Positions 27,830-37,808 of a stretch of 64,000 bases of DNA are shown one piece after another (the first letter of the stretch is position 1; each line of letters opens with the position of its first letter). This DNA comes from Parietichytrium sp. I65-24A (lineage: Eukaryota > Sar > Bigyra > Thraustochytrida > Thraustochytriidae): assembly GCA_012862575.1 (NCBI GenBank), contig BLSF01000093.1, forward strand, positions 1-64,000, in the 5' to 3' direction. The position numbers and the translations under genes were made by a program. A model generated the notes under the pieces. It was not told the DNA's origin. It saw only the letters and a list, made by a program, of their open reading frames with translations, and did not search any database.

Positions 27830-30031
27830 ATGTACGCGCAGGAGAGGATGGGCCACGGCCACAATGCCCACATCATGGGCCACGGACATCAACAGCAGCA
27901 GCACATGAACTTTGACGAGCTGGTGGAGCCTGGCCTGCTCAATGACCTCTTCGAGTTCGAGAACGCCAACTTCATGATGAAGGCCGATCAAGATTTTCAC
28001 AACATGCCAGGGGGCAACGGCAACCCTGCCGCAAGGCATGGGGAGTTCAAGCAGCAGCCAGAACACGACTTTTCGGCGCCACACCAAGAGAGCAACGAAC
28101 AGGAGAACAAGATGGACATGGAGCAAGTCCTCAACATCCTCGAGGCAGCGGAGACCGGGTATTTCATCGACACCATCTCCCAGCGCCCGCAGGCATCGCC
28201 TATTTGCCCTGCCATCACCTGTTTTTACGTCAACCCCAGTCTCAAGCATCTGCTCTCTGAGAGCGAACGCGAGGAGCGCCTCGGAGACCCAGACACCCTC
28301 ATCGCCGTCAAGTACCAGGGCTTTTCAAATGGCGAGGTTTGGTGGTCTCCAAGACACAACAATTGCAAAGGTGTCGTAGCCAGGAACATGACTCGCAAAG
28401 CGAGAAACTCTCGAAACACTGCAGAGCATGGCTTTGCTGGAAGGTGGTACACGCTTATCCGACGATCGAACGAGGATGTCAAGGTCTCCAAGAATGATTG
28501 CCGTGATTTTATCGTTGTCGGCGCGCCTTCCTTCGTGCAGTTTTGGCCAGCTCCGGAGGTCAGGCTCAAGGACCGCTCTCTCAAGCGCAGGAGAACCGCT
28601 GGTAACGGCAGTAACAATGGCCAGACTTCGCAGAGCCCGAGAAGCACCTCGGACATGTGCTCGATTTCGTCCAGAGAGTCGCACGATACCTCCGAAATGA
28701 CAGATACACACTCGCATCCGGAAGAATTCGGGAACGCGGCCAACAACGTTCGCAGGACCAGCGACAATACCAAAGCTACAAGCAGCAAGCAAACGCAGAA
28801 CAGCAAGTTCTCCGAGAACGCCGCCCCCGTACTCAACACCCAGAACTCCCTGGCCCTTCGACAGTCAGAGTCGCGCTCCCTGTCTTCGTCCTCCTCCTCC
28901 TCAAACTTCGCATCGAACTACTCCTCGGCCTCGTCTCGTCCTCTCGGTTCACGCGAGTTCGTCCAGCACGATGGCGCGCTGGTTGTAGAGCACGGTCTCT
29001 ATGTAAAAGGGGACTGTGTCATCGAAGGGGACCTCGTTGCCAACAACCTCAGAGTGCTCGGCCAGCTTACAGTCGATGGCGGCATCCATGGACAGCTCGT
29101 CACTCCACCAAATGCCGCTGACTACGCAGAATGGTTCCCTTGCCTGGACCCAAAAGAAAATATTCTTCCAGGCAATGTGGTCCAACTTCGCTCTCCGGAG
29201 CAGCGCATCACTCTCGACACCTCAGGTCGCGGACCATGCATGGTGGTTTCCACCACCCCATCTGTCGCTGCCGGTGTCCCTCTCGGAGTGAAAAAGGCTG
29301 AAGGTCGCCTTGTCGCGTTCATTGGTCAGGCCCCTGTGCGATGCCGCGGACCGATCAAGTGCGGAGACCAGCTGTTCCCTACTGGGCACTGCGACGGACT
29401 CGCTGTTGCTGGTGACAGCCGCCACACTGACTTCGAGCCCATTGCCACTGCCATGGAATCTTGCGGACCAGGCATTCACACCGTGCATGCATTTGTTCGC
29501 TGGCCACACAACAGGGAATGGAGTAGCCGCAGACAGAGAGCTATGCAGCTCTCATCCACCACCATCAGCTCGTGGAGAATCCTCTCTGTCTTCTTGGTAT
29601 ACCTCATCATTCGCGGTATCTACATGAACAACTCGAACGCATTCCCACTGATTCCGCAGGTCTTGACTACTCTGGAGCTCGCACACATCATCTTGCTCTT
29701 CACCAAGTTTCCCGTCTACCCCGAGTTTGCATGGCGAGACTTTTGGGTCGGCTGTGCTCTGCATACCTATGATCTGATTTACACCTCTCACCAGTTCTCG
29801 CAGCAAGCTCTTTCTGTTCAAGCTGGCGACGAGAAACCCGTCACTATGGGCCAGATCAGGGGCCTCCTCTTTGATTGCATCCTCGTGCAGATCCATGTGG
29901 TATTCATCATACTCGTCATGCGAATCTACTTTCGCGCTCGCAGTGCGATCCTTGCACTTCCCAGCGAAGACACTGCACGCTCAGACTGGAGCAAAAAGCT
30001 GGTCCCGCACATTTTTTCATTTTCGTGGTAA
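27830..30031 (+). CDS. Multi-pass membrane protein with phage-type peptidase-G2-like domain
   Basis: Predicted 733 residues, starting at the ATG in AAGAATGTACG. Residues 1-120 are Met/His/Gln-rich and acidic. Residues 125-245 form a globular region I cannot assign, ending in the basic cluster LKRRR (251-255), a possible nuclear localisation signal. Residues 256-372 are Ser/Thr-rich linker. Residues 383-425 look like stacked beta turns (YVKGDCVIEGDLVANNLRVL), as in bactofilin or tail-spike beta solenoids. Residues 430-545 resemble the Peptidase_G2 (IMC autoproteolytic) domain of phage appendage proteins: ADYAEWF, then LPGNVVQL, GVPLGV, and VAFIGQAPVRCRGPIKCGD. Four hydrophobic segments follow (about 580-597, 606-626, 637-652, 677-700). 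The order soluble basic part, beta solenoid, self-cleaving-type domain, membrane helices parallels MYRF-type membrane-tethered regulators. That analogy, and self-cleavage, are inference. Confidence 0.7.
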   Translation: MYAQERMGHGHNAHIMGHGHQQQQHMNFDELVEPGLLNDLFEFENANFMMKADQDFHNMPGGNGNPAARHGEFKQQPEHDFSAPHQESNEQENKMDMEQVLNILEAAETGYFIDTISQRPQASPICPAITCFYVNPSLKHLLSESEREERLGDPDTLIAVKYQGFSNGEVWWSPRHNNCKGVVARNMTRKARNSRNTAEHGFAGRWYTLIRRSNEDVKVSKNDCRDFIVVGAPSFVQFWPAPEVRLKDRSLKRRRTAGNGSNNGQTSQSPRSTSDMCSISSRESHDTSEMTDTHSHPEEFGNAANNVRRTSDNTKATSSKQTQNSKFSENAAPVLNTQNSLALRQSESRSLSSSSSSSNFASNYSSASSRPLGSREFVQHDGALVVEHGLYVKGDCVIEGDLVANNLRVLGQLTVDGGIHGQLVTPPNAADYAEWFPCLDPKENILPGNVVQLRSPEQRITLDTSGRGPCMVVSTTPSVAAGVPLGVKKAEGRLVAFIGQAPVRCRGPIKCGDQLFPTGHCDGLAVAGDSRHTDFEPIATAMESCGPGIHTVHAFVRWPHNREWSSRRQRAMQLSSTTISSWRILSVFLVYLIIRGIYMNNSNAFPLIPQVLTTLELAHIILLFTKFPVYPEFAWRDFWVGCALHTYDLIYTSHQFSQQALSVQAGDEKPVTMGQIRGLLFDCILVQIHVVFIILVMRIYFRARSAILALPSEDTARSDWSKKLVPHIFSFSW

Positions 30032-30160
30032 TTGAAAAAGCTCTGGACCCCTAATCCTGGGATGGTTGGCACCGCCCATCCCCGCAGCTTTTGAGCTGGT
30101 GCCTCTTTCATGTTTGTACCTTTCTCTTGCTTCAGGCTTTCCCTCGAAAGTGTTGGGCCG

Positions 30161-31560
30161 AACGACCGTGAGACGCGTAGATCATTCGGACTGGCCTAAC
30201 GTTTTGTATTGCCTTGCTTGGCGTTCACCAAAGACCATATTAGAACGCCATCTCCCTACTTGACTTTTGATGATGCGCTAAATATTTGATATTGAAATGT
30301 TTTTTGTCTTCGAAAGAGATTCCACAGTTTCAACCCACGAAACAGAGGAGAGTTGCGGCACTGTTTGATGAACAAATGCAATCTCTCCGATTAAGCTCGA
30401 GCCTCCGTCATCTTCGAGTCCACATCTCTGTGGCCGAACAACACGCGCCCAATGGTAAAGGTCCATGCACCCAAAGGCGTTGCATCCTTTGCTGTACAAA
30501 GTGCAAGAAAGAAAAGCCGCGATCACAAGTTCTTCGTCGCACCACCGCCAACCTCGCTTCACAATGCAGATGTGCTCGACCTGTAAGGTTTGCTCTCCCG
30601 TGCACCACTCTGAAACCGAGCTATCTTTACCTCCATGCCGATCTTTGCATTGACAGTCATTTCATCTTCCTGTGTTTTACATACAGCCTGCATCGTCGTT
30701 CGCGGTCGTTTTGCCTGCAGAAAAAATTAGTGAACAGATCTTTATTCTTCACGCACAGGTCTCCATTCCTCGTGAAGAACTGAATTGCCGGGATTCTTTC
30801 CCAGCGCAACCGCTTACTCAATCTCTGCCAATGTTGCAGCTTCCTTCTGTTCACGACTCTCTTCCTCCTCTTCATTTTAGAATTCAGATTTTTTCCAATT
30901 TACATCGATAGTGTGAGATGCAAATGAGAAAGAAAAAAGATCCGTTCCAAGTGCCTTAAGCCCTTTTATTCCAAACAATAGTACCTGCGGTGTGTACCTT
31001 TTTTTACTTACACTCTAGTACTAGCGCCCACCGTAAACAAATGTTATCCTATGTAATAAGACATTATTAGTTCAAACCAAAACAGTGAATGAATGAATAA
31101 ATTGGGAGAAGGAGATGAGCTATTGAATGAGAGTATTTCAAGATCGTTTGTGAATGGGATAGCAAAGGCTGTCAGCATTATAGCCGCGGAAAGTGGAACG
31201 TGGAACGTGGAAAGGTCGCGCAAAGCAGAGGTCTCGCGGTCGAGAGATCGAGAGATTGAGAGAGGTTTTGGAGCCGCGGCAAGAGTCCGTCGGTTGAGCT
31301 GCTTTTGTCTTCGTGCTGCTCTTCTGCTTTTGAGTCTATACCAAAAGAGTTGTGTTTCAGCTTCAGCAGCGGCCGAGCAGAATGGATCCGTCGCAATTGG
31401 ACGCGAGCTGGGAGACTGCGCAGGATATCCGACACATGCTGCAGACGCCGGCCTCCTTCCGGCCAGGCACGGGGCAAACACTTGGCTCGCGGAGACCGTC
31501 GACGTGCTCGACGTACGAGGACCAGGACCTGGACCTGGACCTGGAAGAGGCCGAAGAGTA
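30161..31560 (+). repeat. 1.4 kb direct duplication, left copy
   Basis: Near-identical to 31562-32959 with a few substitutions and small indels. It ends, in mid-gene, at the n at 31561. This pattern (contig end, n, restart of the same sequence) is typical of two overlapping contigs, or two alleles, that were scaffolded end to end, so one copy may not exist in the genome. Confidence 0.92.
31382..31560 (+). pseudogene. Partial 5' end of the acidic protein gene (left copy)
   Basis: Encodes the first ~59 residues (MDPSQLDASWETAQ ... DLEEAEE) of the gene complete at 32787-33659 and stops at the n. It has one extra GACCTG (Asp-Leu) unit compared with the complete copy, so the two are not strictly identical. 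Probably an assembly duplicate or the other allele. Confidence 0.75.
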
Positions 31561-31561
31561 N
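31561..31561. other. Assembly gap (single n) at duplication junction
   Basis: Single ambiguous base exactly between the two copies of the 1.4 kb repeat. Confidence 0.95.
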
Positions 31562-32959
31562 AACGACCGTGAGACGCGTAGATCATTCGGACTGGCCTAA
31601 CGTTTTGTATTGCCTTGCTTGGCGTTCACCAAAGACCATATTAGAACGCCATCTCCCTACTTGACTTTTGATGATGCGCTAAATATTTGATATTGAAATG
31701 TTTTTTGTCTTCGAAAGAGATTCCACAGTTTCAACCCACGAAACAGAGGAGAGTTGCGGCACTGTTTGATGAACAAATGCAATCTCTCCGATTAAGCTCG
31801 AGCCTCCGTCATCTTCGAGTCCACATCTCTGTGGCCGAACAACACGCGCCCAATGGTAAAGGTCCATGCACCCAAAGGCGTTGCATCCTTTGCTGTACAA
31901 AGTGCAAGAAAGAAAAGCCGCGATCACAAGTTCTTCGTCGCACCACCGCCAACCTCGCTTCACAATGCAGATGTGCTCGACCTGTAAGGTTTGCTCTCCC
32001 GTGCACCACTCTGAAACCGAGCTATCTTTACCTCCATGCCGATCTTTGCATTGACAGTCATTTCATCTTCCTGTGTTTTACATACAGTCTGCATCGTCGT
32101 TCGCGGTCGTTTTGCCTGCAGAAAAAATTAGTGAACAGATCTTTATTCTTCACGCACAGGTCTCCATTCCTCGTGAAGAATTGAATTGCCGGGATTCTTT
32201 CCCAGCGCAACCGCTTACTCAATCTCTGCCACTGTTGCAGCTTCCTTGTGTTCATCACTCTCTTCCTCCTCTTCATTTTAGAATTTATTTCTGACAGTGT
32301 GAGATGCAATGAGAAAGAAAAAAGATCCGTTCGAAGTGCCCTAAGCCCGTCTATTTCAAACAATAGTACAGGTGGTGTGTACCTTTTTTTACTTACACTC
32401 TAGCACTAGCGCCCACCGTAAACGATTGTTATCCTATGTAATAAGACATTATTAGTTCAAACCAAAACAACCAAAACAGTGAATGAATAAATTGGGAGAA
32501 GGAGATGAGCTATTGAATGAGAGTATTTCAAGATCGTTTGTGAATGGGATAGCAAAGGCTGTCAGCATTATAGCTGCGGAAAGTGGAACGTGGAACGTGG
32601 AACGTGGAAAGGTCGCGCAAAGCAGAGGTCTCGCGGTCGAGAGATCGAGAGATCGAGAGATTGAGAGAGGTTTTGGAGCCGCGGCAAGAGTCCGTCGGTT
32701 GAGCTGCTTTTGTCTTCGTGCTGCTCTTCTGCTTTTGAGTCTATACAAAAAGAGTTGTGTTTCAGCTTCAGCAGCGGCCGAGCAGAATGGATCCGTCGCA
32801 ATTGGACGCGAGCTGGGAGACTGCGCAGGATATCCGACACATGCTGCAGACGCCGGCCTCCTTCCGGCCAGGCACGGGGCAAACACTTGGCTCGCGGAGA
32901 CCGTCGACGTGCTCGACGTACGAGGACCAGGACCTGGACCTGGAAGAGGCCGAAGAGTA
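31562..32959 (+). repeat. 1.4 kb direct duplication, right copy
   Basis: Second copy of 30161-31560. It begins with AACGACCGTGAGACG and runs into the coding region of the acidic protein gene, which continues intact beyond the repeat. Differences to the left copy include a loss of about ten bases near 32285 and a gain of AACGTGG near 32595. Confidence 0.92.
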
Positions 32960-33851: not shown

Positions 33852-36800
33852 TCAGTAATCTCCCTGAGGGCAAATTTGGTAGTGCTCGTAAATGATATCC
33901 ATGACACTTTGCACGACTTCCCGAGTAAGGCTCAGCTCATTCACAAGTACGCAAGTCGTCAGATTGAGCTCTGGGAAGCAGAGAACAAGATTTCCGCCAA
34001 AGCAGACTTGACCTATCGCAATCGTTTCTTCGCCTCGTCTCTGGAACAAATACGTTCTGAGGCCTAAAAGATCTTCGTTGAATGGCTCGGCACAATCCCG
34101 TTTGGCAGCGCTGCGGATTTGCCGCACCACCTCTACAGGGATGACTCGGTTTCCGTGGTGTTTTCCGCGATGCAAGATGCAGTGAAGCAAATTGCTCATT
34201 GAAGTGGCGGTCGTGAGCATACTTGCGCTCGGCAGGCACGCAGCCATGATACTCGGATTGTTCATCATGCGAGGGTCCACCCAGTACTCTTTTCCCTTCA
34301 AAGAGGGCACCATCTCCGTCACAATGCCAATTCCACCGCCGTCAGCATTAACTGTTTCAACATCGCCCATCGAACCAAAGTCTTGCAGACCGTGCTGCTC
34401 TAGCAACTTTGCCACGGGAAAACTGACCTGGACTGCGCTACCTTCCTCGTACAACATTTCACTCTCTTCTGGACTTTCGAGTCCAAACCGAAAGTCACCA
34501 AGCGCAGCAAGCTCCTCCCGAGCGAACGTGGCAATTTCAGGACGGGACCCTTGACGGGATTGACGCGCGACGTTCGAATTTTGCTGCACCTCACGCATCG
34601 CAAGAAATCCCCACAAGAAATTTGCGTGGTTGAGTTCATATGGCAAATGAGACTCCTTGCCATCTTTGCGTCGCTGGTTCTCTTTTTTTCGAGAGCAGCC
34701 TTCAAACTCGGAGACAACACCTTCTACATGCTCTAAATTTCTGACCCAGTCTGCAGCAGTTTTGGAGCCAAACGTCTTTGGAACGCTCACGGGGTCAATA
34801 TACATTGTATCCTGATGCTTCAAAACAGACAGGTCCCCGTGCAAGACAGATTGCGCCCAAAGCGAGTCGTCCGGGTACGAGCCATGATGAGCAATGATCT
34901 GCGCCACCGATTGCGCGAGACTAAGCCCCTGGAACAACGTCCTGTTGCTGACTGGGCGGTGGTCTTCCGGAGAAAGCACTCCAGATGATAGTGAGAGTCT
35001 TTCGTCGCCGTCTAGTATGCAAATCTGGATGCCAACAAAGTCGCCTCTTTTATTCTCAAGAGATTCCAGAATTTTGGACTTTAAGGCTTCCAATCGAGGC
35101 GACGCAGAGATATCTGCAGAGCTTTGTAGACCTTCCTCGACCTTTGCCGCATTTTGCTCTAAGAGAGCCTGTTTCGCCCAAGCGGAAAGAATTTTAATAA
35201 AAGGCTGTCTGACTTCCAGGGAACTACAGACTCCTCGAAGCAGGTTGAGCGATCGAAAGAACAACAGCATTTCAGGGGGAAACGACTCCACGGGATTCTC
35301 AAAGTCTTTGCTCTGGAACTTTTGTTTTTCTAACTCGATGCGAGTCATTGTCTCTTTGCGGGATTCTTCGGTTGGAGCGGTGTCCCTAAACATGTGCTGC
35401 AGACCGCTAATATCGTCAAGCACATCTTCTCTCCGCAGAACGACGCCCAACATGTCCCATGCCCAAAGAAGCGCGCCGGCATCTAGTTGGGACCCTGCGT
35501 ACACCATCTTTGCTAGCCCGAGACGAATATTGGTAGGTAACCGCAGTGCGAGACCAAAATCGAGCAAGACGGGAATAGGACGGTCAGGATCTGCAGTGGA
35601 TTTCAAATCAATAGACGACGGTGTGGGTATAGTATCAGCCAACTGCGGCAAATGCATGACTTGTCCGTCACTAACGTCTTCTCGTCTGGCGACGAGGATA
35701 TTTCCCGGATGCGGATCTGCATTAAAGATACCGTCAATAAACATTTGTTGCGCGAACGCATCGCAGATGTCGTTGGCTAGCACGCCCCGCGAGTGATATC
35801 CTGTCACACCCACGGTAGCAAGAGCCTTTAGGTCGGTGACTTTGACTCCTTTGACGTATCTCATGATCATCACGCGCTTGGTGCAACGGTCGCCATCTTT
35901 TATTGCAGAAGGCACAGTCGCATTAACTGAATTGCGTGACTTGAGATTCTCTCCGACCTCCTCCATGTTCGAGAGCTCGTGGGTAAAGTCTAACTCACTC
36001 AACACGCTTTGCCTCCAGTGATCCAGGACCTCGTGAAGGTCTAGCTTGCGATCTACGAGGGACACCCATCGAAGTACAACACCCATGTTGTATACGTCTT
36101 GGCGCAACTTGCTCTCAATTCCGGGATGCTGCACTTTCACAACAACTTTTGAGCCGTCTTTAAGTTTAGCCAGGTGAACTTGACCAATACTTGCAGCGGC
36201 TATGGGGTCGGGCTCAAACGCAGCAAATTCCTGATCAAGCTGTGTTCCGAGCTCCGCTTCAAGAAAAGGCTTGAGCTTGTCAAATGGGGTTGGAGGGACG
36301 GAATCTTGCAGCCTTCCTAAAACATTGGTGATTGTAGGGGGAAATACATCAGGCCGTGAACCTAGCGCCTGCGCGACCTTGACCCAGAACCCTCCAAGCG
36401 AGAGAGAGTGGTAGTAAACTTCCTCTGCAACCGCGCGTTGCTTCGTCTTCCAGACCGCGGACGAGTGAATGGCGGGGAGATCCTCGGCCTTCATGTCAGT
36501 CACTTTAAGATCAAAAATGAGCCGCGCACTGAGCAGATACACTTTCATCCGTCTTCTGAAAAGAGCAAAGTAGTTTGAGGTCATGACTAGTTTGGAAACC
36601 AATCCTGCAAGCGTCACCAAAGTAGCTTGAGCGATTGGGGATTTTGGAAGAGCACGAATCACTGCGAGTCGGAGACGGTGTCCTATGAGCCAAAGGCTCG
36701 CCAAAAGCGGTACTATACGCCAAGAAAGCTTTCGTAAGAGAAATGAAGAATGACTCTCCACCCCAGATGCAATAAGACTGGCCTCAAGGGCCTCTGCTTG

Positions 36801-37808
36801 CTCCGCAAACGTGTAGCCCGAACTAATGGATGGTGCTGCGCCGCCCTCAGCAGCCACTTCACTCACGACAGCAACGGAGGACTGTGGACCACCGCCCCAC
36901 CTGTTGGGGGTCTCAATTTTTGCCGGTTGAGAGGACGGCGCTGAGGCTCTGCTCCTTGCCGTGATGGCTGCTTTTAGCTTTTGAAGCCACTCAGACCTCA
37001 CTGAATCGTTCTCAGCGCAAACTACGAGGAGGTCCTGACCGACGCGCCGGTCCACCAACGCAAATGCGGCTTGGTTCCTTTTGTCTGACCGCGTAGTGAC
37101 TCGAGGTTCCACGGAGCAGGAGCTATGAAGTTCAAATGTCATTTTGGGCGCACCTCCTTTCTTGGATGCATATGTCAGAGTTGGGCGGTGGTAAGGGTCC
37201 CAGTCCAAAATGAACCACCTCGAGTTCCACTTTCGGAGCCACTCCGACTTTTTCTCCAGCATCCCGGAGAACGTGCCCCGAACGGGCTCGCCTTCCCAAT
37301 CCAGTGACGCCATCGCGCGGCTGTTCTTGCGCTCCTGGGCCTCGATATTTAGCTTCTTGGCGACCTCGATCAATGGAAGCAATTTCATTTTCGCTCGGAG
37401 AGAGCCATCCACTGTGACCTGCCCGAGCTTGATGAGCTTTTCGAAATCGAGCCGCTTGCTCAGCACACCCCTAAACTGCTGCTCAGACTCAAACGTCAAC
37501 GTGATGTCAGCCTTCTGCGCATTGTTTCGAGCATTCACTTTGATTGGCAGCCCCGACTTGAGGTCCACCGTCAATGAGCTTTTGGCGTTCCCCTTGATGG
37601 AGATGCTGAGCACGACGCCAACGACAAGCTCGTTGCGACTCAACAACTTGTCGCCCACGAGTTCCGCGGCAGCTTCCAGAACTTGAAATAAATTTTCACT
37701 CGCCAAGCTCTCTTGGGCGAGGCCAGCTTTCAGGTCCGCGATCTTCGTGCCACCCACATCGTTCAGGCCCAGTTCCTCCAGCGCAGATTCCAGAGCCTCC
37801 TGATCCAT
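33852..37808 (-). CDS. SCP2-PH-ABC1 kinase-beta-lactamase fusion protein
   Basis: Predicted 1318 residues with four recognisable parts. About 45-155: SCP2-like sterol/lipid-binding fold (VTVDGSLRAKMKLLPLIEV). About 177-285: PH domain (SGMLEKKSEWLRKWNSRWFIL ending in SEWLQKLKAAI). About 430-830: ABC1/ADCK (UbiB) atypical kinase, with the KxGQ-type motif altered to KVAQ (477-480), an Ala-rich loop AAASIGQVHLA (537-547), Lys558, NADPHPGN (696-703) and LLDFGLALRL (748-757). About 920-1318: class C beta-lactamase/LACTB-like region. There the expected S-x-x-K is SLAQ (963-966), so the catalytic Lys is replaced by Gln. Two hydrophobic stretches (about 366-403) precede the kinase. ABC1 fused to beta-lactamase is known in plants and algae, where ABC1 kinases act in quinone and lipid metabolism of plastids and mitochondria; the SCP2 and PH parts suggest lipid-membrane work. 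ATG at 37808 is unambiguous. Confidence 0.85.
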   Translation of the reverse strand: MDQEALESALEELGLNDVGGTKIADLKAGLAQESLASENLFQVLEAAAELVGDKLLSRNELVVGVVLSISIKGNAKSSLTVDLKSGLPIKVNARNNAQKADITLTFESEQQFRGVLSKRLDFEKLIKLGQVTVDGSLRAKMKLLPLIEVAKKLNIEAQERKNSRAMASLDWEGEPVRGTFSGMLEKKSEWLRKWNSRWFILDWDPYHRPTLTYASKKGGAPKMTFELHSSCSVEPRVTTRSDKRNQAAFALVDRRVGQDLLVVCAENDSVRSEWLQKLKAAITARSRASAPSSQPAKIETPNRWGGGPQSSVAVVSEVAAEGGAAPSISSGYTFAEQAEALEASLIASGVESHSSFLLRKLSWRIVPLLASLWLIGHRLRLAVIRALPKSPIAQATLVTLAGLVSKLVMTSNYFALFRRRMKVYLLSARLIFDLKVTDMKAEDLPAIHSSAVWKTKQRAVAEEVYYHSLSLGGFWVKVAQALGSRPDVFPPTITNVLGRLQDSVPPTPFDKLKPFLEAELGTQLDQEFAAFEPDPIAAASIGQVHLAKLKDGSKVVVKVQHPGIESKLRQDVYNMGVVLRWVSLVDRKLDLHEVLDHWRQSVLSELDFTHELSNMEEVGENLKSRNSVNATVPSAIKDGDRCTKRVMIMRYVKGVKVTDLKALATVGVTGYHSRGVLANDICDAFAQQMFIDGIFNADPHPGNILVARREDVSDGQVMHLPQLADTIPTPSSIDLKSTADPDRPIPVLLDFGLALRLPTNIRLGLAKMVYAGSQLDAGALLWAWDMLGVVLRREDVLDDISGLQHMFRDTAPTEESRKETMTRIELEKQKFQSKDFENPVESFPPEMLLFFRSLNLLRGVCSSLEVRQPFIKILSAWAKQALLEQNAAKVEEGLQSSADISASPRLEALKSKILESLENKRGDFVGIQICILDGDERLSLSSGVLSPEDHRPVSNRTLFQGLSLAQSVAQIIAHHGSYPDDSLWAQSVLHGDLSVLKHQDTMYIDPVSVPKTFGSKTAADWVRNLEHVEGVVSEFEGCSRKKENQRRKDGKESHLPYELNHANFLWGFLAMREVQQNSNVARQSRQGSRPEIATFAREELAALGDFRFGLESPEESEMLYEEGSAVQVSFPVAKLLEQHGLQDFGSMGDVETVNADGGGIGIVTEMVPSLKGKEYWVDPRMMNNPSIMAACLPSASMLTTATSMSNLLHCILHRGKHHGNRVIPVEVVRQIRSAAKRDCAEPFNEDLLGLRTYLFQRRGEETIAIGQVCFGGNLVLCFPELNLTTCVLVNELSLTREVVQSVMDIIYEHYQICPQGDY

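What the first reader, a model, noticed from the sequence alone, without database searches (positions are those of the whole stretch)
27830..30031. Possible membrane-tethered, self-cleaving regulator built on a phage peptidase-G2-like domain
Seen: a soluble N-terminal region with a basic cluster (LKRRR), a Ser-rich linker, a beta-turn repeat, a region resembling the Peptidase_G2 self-cleaving domain of phage appendage proteins (ADYAEWF ... VAFIGQAPVR ... IKCGD) and four membrane helices. Known: MYRF couples a phage-derived self-cleaving chaperone domain to a membrane anchor to release a transcription factor. Inference: this gene may be an independent analogue using a different phage domain. 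I know of no described system of this architecture.
Basis: partly seen in the sequence, partly recalled or inferred. Interest (0 to 1): 0.75.

Follow-up and report, generated by a model that had tools for sequence, protein, structure and literature searches.

The report
Membrane-anchored regulator with phage self-cleaving domain
A eukaryotic gene appears to join a probable gene-regulating part to a membrane anchor through a domain related to the self-cleaving tip of phage tail fibres, a layout like that of the myelin regulator MYRF but built from different pieces.

Summary
The gene is real. Window 27830-30031 is one 733-codon frame in a 42.5-Mb assembly of an unidentified eukaryote. A full-length paralogue conserves the N-terminal domain (50% identity), a KRRR cluster, the beta stalk (47%) and most of all the G2-like domain (61%).

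The phage claim holds in substance. The domain is a divergent relative of Peptidase_G2. Pfam gives 15.6 bits for the window piece and 23.0 for the paralogue, both under the cut-off of 25. A profile of bacterial relatives gives 29.1 and 37.6, against at most 11.7 for 10,000 shuffles; much of the window's score rests on one motif. phi29 gp12 is cut between Ser691 and Asp692 (S|DFAEYF); the window reads A430|DYAEWF. Asp431 and Glu434 match Asp692 and Glu695, and Glu695 is Gln in the solved uncut gp12.

The N-terminal domain is absent from Pfam. At least seven copies lie in this genome, five in proteins with other C-termini.

Best reading: a trimeric, membrane-tethered regulator freed by self-cleavage at A430|D431. 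It resembles MYRF in logic, but neither MYRF's NDT80 nor its S74 domain was detected. Cleavage, trimerisation and DNA binding are inferred, not shown.

The parts
27830..30031 (+). Whole gene, 733 aa, no intron needed
   Evidence: Single open frame; full-length paralogue on G000:C21, L009:3102-5222 -
28109..28561 (+). N-terminal domain, aa 94-244, candidate DNA-binding domain, not in Pfam
   Evidence: At least seven members in own genome; no Pfam family above noise in any of 7; 50.3% identical to paralogue
28562..28594 (+). Basic cluster RLKDRSLKRRR, aa 245-255, candidate nuclear localisation signal
   Evidence: Sequence; RKRRR at the same place in the paralogue
28598..28954 (+). Ser-rich linker, aa 257-375, not conserved
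   Evidence: 11 of 46 aligned positions identical, the rest gapped
28967..29113 (+). Beta stalk, aa 380-428, Gly/hydrophobic repeat of phage-shaft type
   Evidence: 47.2% identical to paralogue over aa 376-428; pattern count against shuffles
29114..29509 (+). G2-like domain, aa 429-560
   Evidence: 61.4% identical to paralogue; weak PF11962 hits; bacterial profile 29.1 bits; profile-profile with phage G2
29117..29137 (+). ADYAEWF, aa 430-436: predicted cut between Ala430 and Asp431; Glu434 matches phi29 Glu695
   Evidence: Alignment with gp12 S691|DFAEYF; mature gp12* is 1-691; solved fragment 3gqh starts at Asp692 and the uncut form 3suc has Gln for Glu695
29564..29944 (+). Membrane region, aa 579-705, three clear and one marginal helix
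   Evidence: Hydropathy; paralogue has four; only 26.3% identical over aa 586-705

Best explanation
The protein is made as a membrane-anchored precursor with its N-terminal part in the cytosol. The beta stalk and G2-like domain bring three chains together, as the G2 domain does in phage tail fibres. Once assembled, the G2-like domain cuts its own chain between Ala430 and Asp431, with Glu434 as the key acid. The N-terminal fragment (aa 1-430: new domain, basic cluster, linker, stalk) leaves as a trimer and enters the nucleus to regulate genes; the G2-like domain and membrane helices (aa 431-733) stay behind. Shown here: the gene, its paralogue, the homology of the domain, the matching residues at the cut site, hydrophobic segments, and the family of N-terminal domains. 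Inferred: trimerisation, cleavage, membrane topology, nuclear entry, DNA binding.
For: G2 homology: PF11962 E = 6.1e-5 for the paralogue piece and 0.011 for the window piece, 27.9 bits (over the cut-off) for a bacterial relative, 328.7 for phi29 gp12. Profile of 11 bacterial sequences: 29.1 and 37.6 bits against at most 11.7 in 10,000 shuffles; the phi29 domain itself scores 17.6 with that profile. On the sequence after the motif alone: 12.3 (window) and 22.5 bits (paralogue) against at most 9.1 in 10,000 shuffles, 7,919 reported. A profile of seven bacterial sequences plus the two eukaryotic domains ranks three G2 proteins first among 177,635 PDB sequences: 8h2i P22 1.3e-6, Dpo31 chaperone domain 2.9e-4, phi29 gp12 fragment 4.4e-3; the fourth and last hit, 0.44, is unrelated. 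Cut site. The solved tailspike Dpo31 has Ala before the same Asp, as here. Conservation peaks in the G2-like domain while the linker drifts. In this genome the domain was found in 2 places, both with the N-terminal domain and a membrane region. The N-terminal domain recurs in 5 proteins with other C-termini. Precedent: MYRF frees a nuclear trimer, and MrfA a nuclear fragment, by a phage chaperone domain (PMC3742443 and PMC3828593, passages).
Confidence: 0.55

Rival explanations
1. The G2-like domain still makes trimers but no longer cuts. The protein is a permanent membrane-bound trimer whose N-terminal domains act at the membrane, or it is released by another protease.
For: Ala in place of Ser at P1; the domain is divergent and under Pfam's cut-off; no experiment here can see cleavage.
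Against: Asp and Glu at the phi29 cut-site and catalytic positions are kept in both eukaryotic copies and in the independently known G2 proteins phi29 gp12, Dpo31 and P22. They are also in all 14 bacterial and viral rows of alignment A8, but those were fetched partly by this motif. Conservation between the paralogues is highest in this domain.
Confidence: 0.22
2. Cleavage happens, but the N-terminal domain is not a DNA-binding domain; the freed trimer is a cytosolic adaptor or enzyme regulator.
For: No known fold, no Pfam match, modest net charge of the window copy.
Against: A KRRR/RKRRR cluster follows the domain in both copies, and the domain recurs in proteins without a strong membrane segment (best hydropathy window 1.22) that have long low-complexity regions, one of them Gln-rich.
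Confidence: 0.17
3. The gene is a recent viral or bacterial fibre gene in the genome, or an assembly contaminant, not a host regulator.
For: Nearest relatives of the G2-like domain found are fibre-like proteins of Peribacteria/Peregrinibacteria and of viral contigs.
Against: Two diverged paralogues on different contigs, both fused to a domain with five further copies in the genome; no relative of the N-terminal domain found in viral contigs.
Confidence: 0.03

Closest known systems
MYRF / MrfA membrane-tethered transcription factors
   Same: Order of parts: soluble N-terminal domain, basic cluster, beta stalk, phage-type self-cleaving chaperone, membrane anchor.
   Different: MYRF has an NDT80-type DNA-binding domain and an S74-type (Ser-Lys) ICA domain with one membrane pass (NDT80, the S74 name and the single pass are recalled; the Ser-Lys dyad is from PMC8326128). 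Here neither domain was found; the chaperone is G2-like and the membrane part looks polytopic.
phi29 gp12 pre-neck appendage C-terminal domain (Pfam PF11962 Peptidase_G2)
   Same: Related sequence over the domain; Asp at the cut and Glu three residues on.
   Different: Divergent, under Pfam's cut-off; Ala for Ser before the cut; lacks the middle insertion of gp12; followed by membrane helices and preceded by an unrelated domain.
GADYAEWF domains of Peribacteria/Peregrinibacteria fibre-like proteins
   Same: Closest sequences found outside this genome (23-29% identical), also without the gp12 insertion.
   Different: In large repeat proteins of fibre type; N-terminal domain and membrane anchor were not looked for in them.
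Fungal NDT80 proteins with a membrane segment (survey PMC13294678)
   Same: Membrane-bound candidate regulators predicted from domain combinations.
   Different: They lack MYRF's ICA domain according to the passage seen.

Membership tests
Peptidase_G2 (PF11962) | Score over Pfam's gathering cut-off of 25 bits | tested here: not met
   Window piece 15.6 bits, paralogue piece 23.0 bits; genome search with the family found nothing. So it is called G2-like, not a PF11962 member
Peptidase_G2 (PF11962) | Sequence homology over the domain | tested here: met
   firm with the paralogue, thin for the window alone
Peptidase_G2 (PF11962) | Asp at the cut site and Glu three residues later | tested here: met
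   Asp431 and Glu434 match Asp692 and Glu695
Peptidase_G2 (PF11962) | Autocleavage after trimerisation | not testable with these tools
   Needs expression
Peptidase_G2 (PF11962) | Same fold as phi29 gp12 C-terminal domain | tested here: inconclusive
MYRF | NDT80/PhoG DNA-binding domain | tested here: not met
   No PF05224 in 7 N-terminal domains at E up to 10, within HMMER's filters; a remote relation of fold is not excluded
MYRF | Peptidase_S74/ICA domain with Ser-Lys dyad | tested here: not met
   No PF13884 in the protein or paralogue; S74 occurs elsewhere in the genome
MYRF | Membrane segment C-terminal to the chaperone | tested here: met
   Hydropathy only
MYRF | Freed N-terminal trimer enters nucleus and binds DNA | not testable with these tools
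   Needs experiment

The most novel reading that the evidence does not exclude
Eukaryotes twice built membrane-tethered transcription factors from phage tail-fibre self-cleaving chaperones: MYRF from the Ser-Lys S74 type, and this family from the acid-type G2 domain, joined to a DNA-binding domain not yet described.
Probability: 0.5. Interest if true: 0.87.

Novelty: new variant of a known kind. Interest (0 to 1): 0.74.

Why it matters
If true, the MYRF trick evolved at least twice from different phage chaperones, which would make trimerisation-triggered self-release a general solution rather than an oddity. It would be the first G2-type domain at work in a regulator of a cellular eukaryote that I know of (recalled), and would add a DNA-binding domain family absent from Pfam. 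It can be tested in E. coli with one construct and one point mutant that removes activity.

Tried and rejected
MYRF orthologue: rejected, no NDT80 or S74 domain detected. NDT80 in the genome: nothing, but the control was silent too, so absence is not shown. PF11962 in the genome by family search: no match, though the control rang in Bacillus subtilis; the two copies are too divergent for that search. Single-sequence model of the N-terminal domain: useless (pLDDT 32). PDB profile search with the N-terminal domain: three hits at E 0.16 to 1.4, none credible. PDB search with the whole window protein: four hits at E 0.039 to 1.8, none relevant; with the two eukaryotic G2-like domains alone: one hit, E 1.5. 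NCBIfam: only a Ser-rich hit, E 0.31. PHROGs: window piece E 0.025 and whole protein 0.14 to phrog_22593, paralogue piece 1.8e-5 to phrog_34132 and 0.0051 to phrog_6427, all of unknown function. Relatives of the N-terminal domain in viral contigs: none. G2-like relatives in viral contigs: none with the eukaryotic sequences first or with one bacterial copy; four with a bacterial sequence heading the alignment, of which L048 and L049 are identical (6222 of 6222 bases). Foldseek: no match at E 0.001 or better, best rows are phage head proteins. Organism: not identified; a search for omega_3_PfaA, meant to test for a thraustochytrid, gave only partial hits under the cut-off. Printed precedent: Peptidase_G2, searched as one word, is in 0 papers of the library; the spaced form was not searched alone. 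Searches listed no paper whose title or abstract start names a eukaryotic G2 protein; most listed papers were not opened. PMC11476376, passages, says nothing of autocleavage.

Full report
The gene. Window 27830-30031 holds one + strand frame of 733 codons. The window is contig C93:1-64000 of an assembly of 42.5 Mb in 172 contigs. A protein search of the assembly found a full-length relative on C21 (L009:3102-5222, minus) and five further frames that match only the N-terminal part: two on C4, one each on C73, C118 and C38. Searches with two of those N-terminal domains added no new member, and a search with the paralogue's G2-like domain found only the two known copies. The tool scores only its best candidates, so these are lower bounds.

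Conservation. Aligned to the paralogue, identity is 22.5% in the N-tail, 50.3% in the N-terminal domain (aa 94-244), 23.9% of the few aligned linker positions, 47.2% in the stalk, 61.4% in the G2-like domain (aa 429-560) and 26.3% in the membrane region. The basic cluster after the N-terminal domain is kept as KRRR/RKRRR. A conserved multi-domain protein is thus shown.

The G2-like domain. Pfam scores the window's piece at 15.6 bits, E 0.011, the paralogue's at 23.0 bits, E 6.1e-5, a Peribacter relative at 27.9 bits and phi29 gp12 at 328.7, with a cut-off of 25. The whole window protein gives no hit, the whole paralogue E 0.0017. The scan of bacterial and archaeal genomes returned 11 loci of 184 stretches matching a pattern, all 11 named Peribacteria or Peregrinibacteria groups. 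They carry GADYAEWF domains in large, repeat-rich, fibre-like proteins. The scan of viral contigs with a bacterial sequence first returned four loci of 32 stretches, two of them identical, with repeat-rich proteins ending in the same motif and domain. One bacterial copy matches 11 Pseudomonas phage records at E about 1e-5; two are annotated as a baseplate/tail pin or virion structural protein and nine as hypothetical. The window's own domain matched 8 phage records at E 0.4 to 10, one of them a pre-neck appendage protein.

Tests of that homology. A profile of the 11 bacterial sequences alone gives 29.1 bits for the window and 37.6 for the paralogue, while the best of 10,000 shuffles gets 11.7; adding four phage sequences gives 29.4 and 35.8 against 10.8; four phage sequences alone give 10.6 and 13.8 against 6.8. 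Since the bacterial loci were found through the motif, I scored the part after the motif by itself: 12.3 and 22.5 bits against at most 9.1 in 10,000 shuffles (7,919 reported). With the motif masked in the full protein the window falls to 8.4 bits, below the two best shuffles, and the paralogue keeps 18.4. With the same profile phi29 gp12 itself scores 17.6, or 10.7 with its motif masked. The homology is firm through the paralogue and thin for the window alone. Profile-profile comparison with four phage G2 domains gives E 7.5e-7 for the two eukaryotic copies (54 columns) and 3.5e-16 for the combined eukaryotic and bacterial profile (139 columns), each for a single comparison. The combined profile ranks P22 (8h2i), the Dpo31 chaperone domain and the phi29 gp12 fragment first in the PDB; the two eukaryotic copies alone did not find them.

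The cut site. Mature gp12* covers residues 1-691 (PMC6542822, passages). In the PDB the solved C-terminal fragment 3gqh begins at Asp692, and the chain shared by 3gq7, 3gq8, 3gq9 and 3gqa ends at 691. 3suc, titled the pre-mature form, differs from the 3gqh sequence over their shared stretch only by Gln in place of Glu695. I infer that Glu695 is needed for cleavage; the paper was not read. gp12 reads S|DFAEYFESLDG and the window A|DYAEWFPCLDP. Asp and Glu are kept in both eukaryotic copies, in Dpo31 and in P22, and in all 14 bacterial and viral rows, though those rows were fetched partly by this motif. The P1 residue differs from phi29 (Ala for Ser), but the solved tailspike Dpo31 also has Ala there, as do the 14 rows.

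The N-terminal domain. Seven members share about 150 residues; the pattern RPxASPI, VKY, WWSP, GVVxRxM, VQFW is the consensus of the five closest. None has a Pfam match above noise or a credible PDB match. Four of the five other paralogues share, by eye, a second C-terminal region also unknown to Pfam. That the domain binds DNA is inference from its spread over proteins without a strong membrane segment and from the adjacent basic cluster.

Comparison. MYRF is freed from the ER as a nuclear trimer, and MrfA as a nuclear fragment, by a phage-type domain with a Ser-Lys dyad (PMC3742443, passages; PMC8326128, abstract and passages; PMC3828593, passages). The present protein has the same order of parts but a different chaperone, no detectable NDT80 domain and an apparently polytopic anchor. 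It works like MYRF, on the best reading, but is not a member of that family. A 2026 survey of membrane-bound regulators (PMC13294678, passages) mentions fungal NDT80 membrane proteins that lack the ICA domain; the words peptidase, stramenopile and protist do not occur in its main text. The one-word name Peptidase_G2 appears in no paper of the library.

Verdict. Observation confirmed, interpretation partly supported. The most likely mechanism is self-release of a trimeric regulator at A430|D431, at about 0.55.

Noticed in passing
window 30159-30854 and 31560-32255: Near-identical direct duplication (496 of 498 bases in the compared part, offset 1401) just downstream of the gene, with a single N at 31561; possibly an assembly artefact.
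   Followed up: partly
window 33852-37808, minus strand: 1318-aa frame joining an SCP2-like stretch (just under cut-off), a PH domain and an ABC1 atypical kinase domain.
   Followed up: partly
G000:C32 (L015, L016, L019); also C22 (L014), C54 (L017), C48 (L018): A 12,825-codon open frame with three Peptidase_S74 matches; S74 also on three other contigs (6 matches in all). None of these contigs is among those with the N-terminal domain. Only the frames of L014 and L018 were read.
   Followed up: partly
L010, L011, L012: Four paralogues share a second conserved C-terminal region (EFxxWY ... DPRL..DFMF ... LPPLP) with no Pfam match.
   Followed up: partly
PDB 8h2i chain P22: A large protein with a clear G2-type domain; from memory the entry is a chlorella virus capsid, which would show that a eukaryotic virus can carry this domain.
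   Followed up: no
G000:C66 (L046): A 5583-codon frame with repeated partial matches to the PfaA model, probably a large polyketide or fatty-acid synthase.
   Followed up: no
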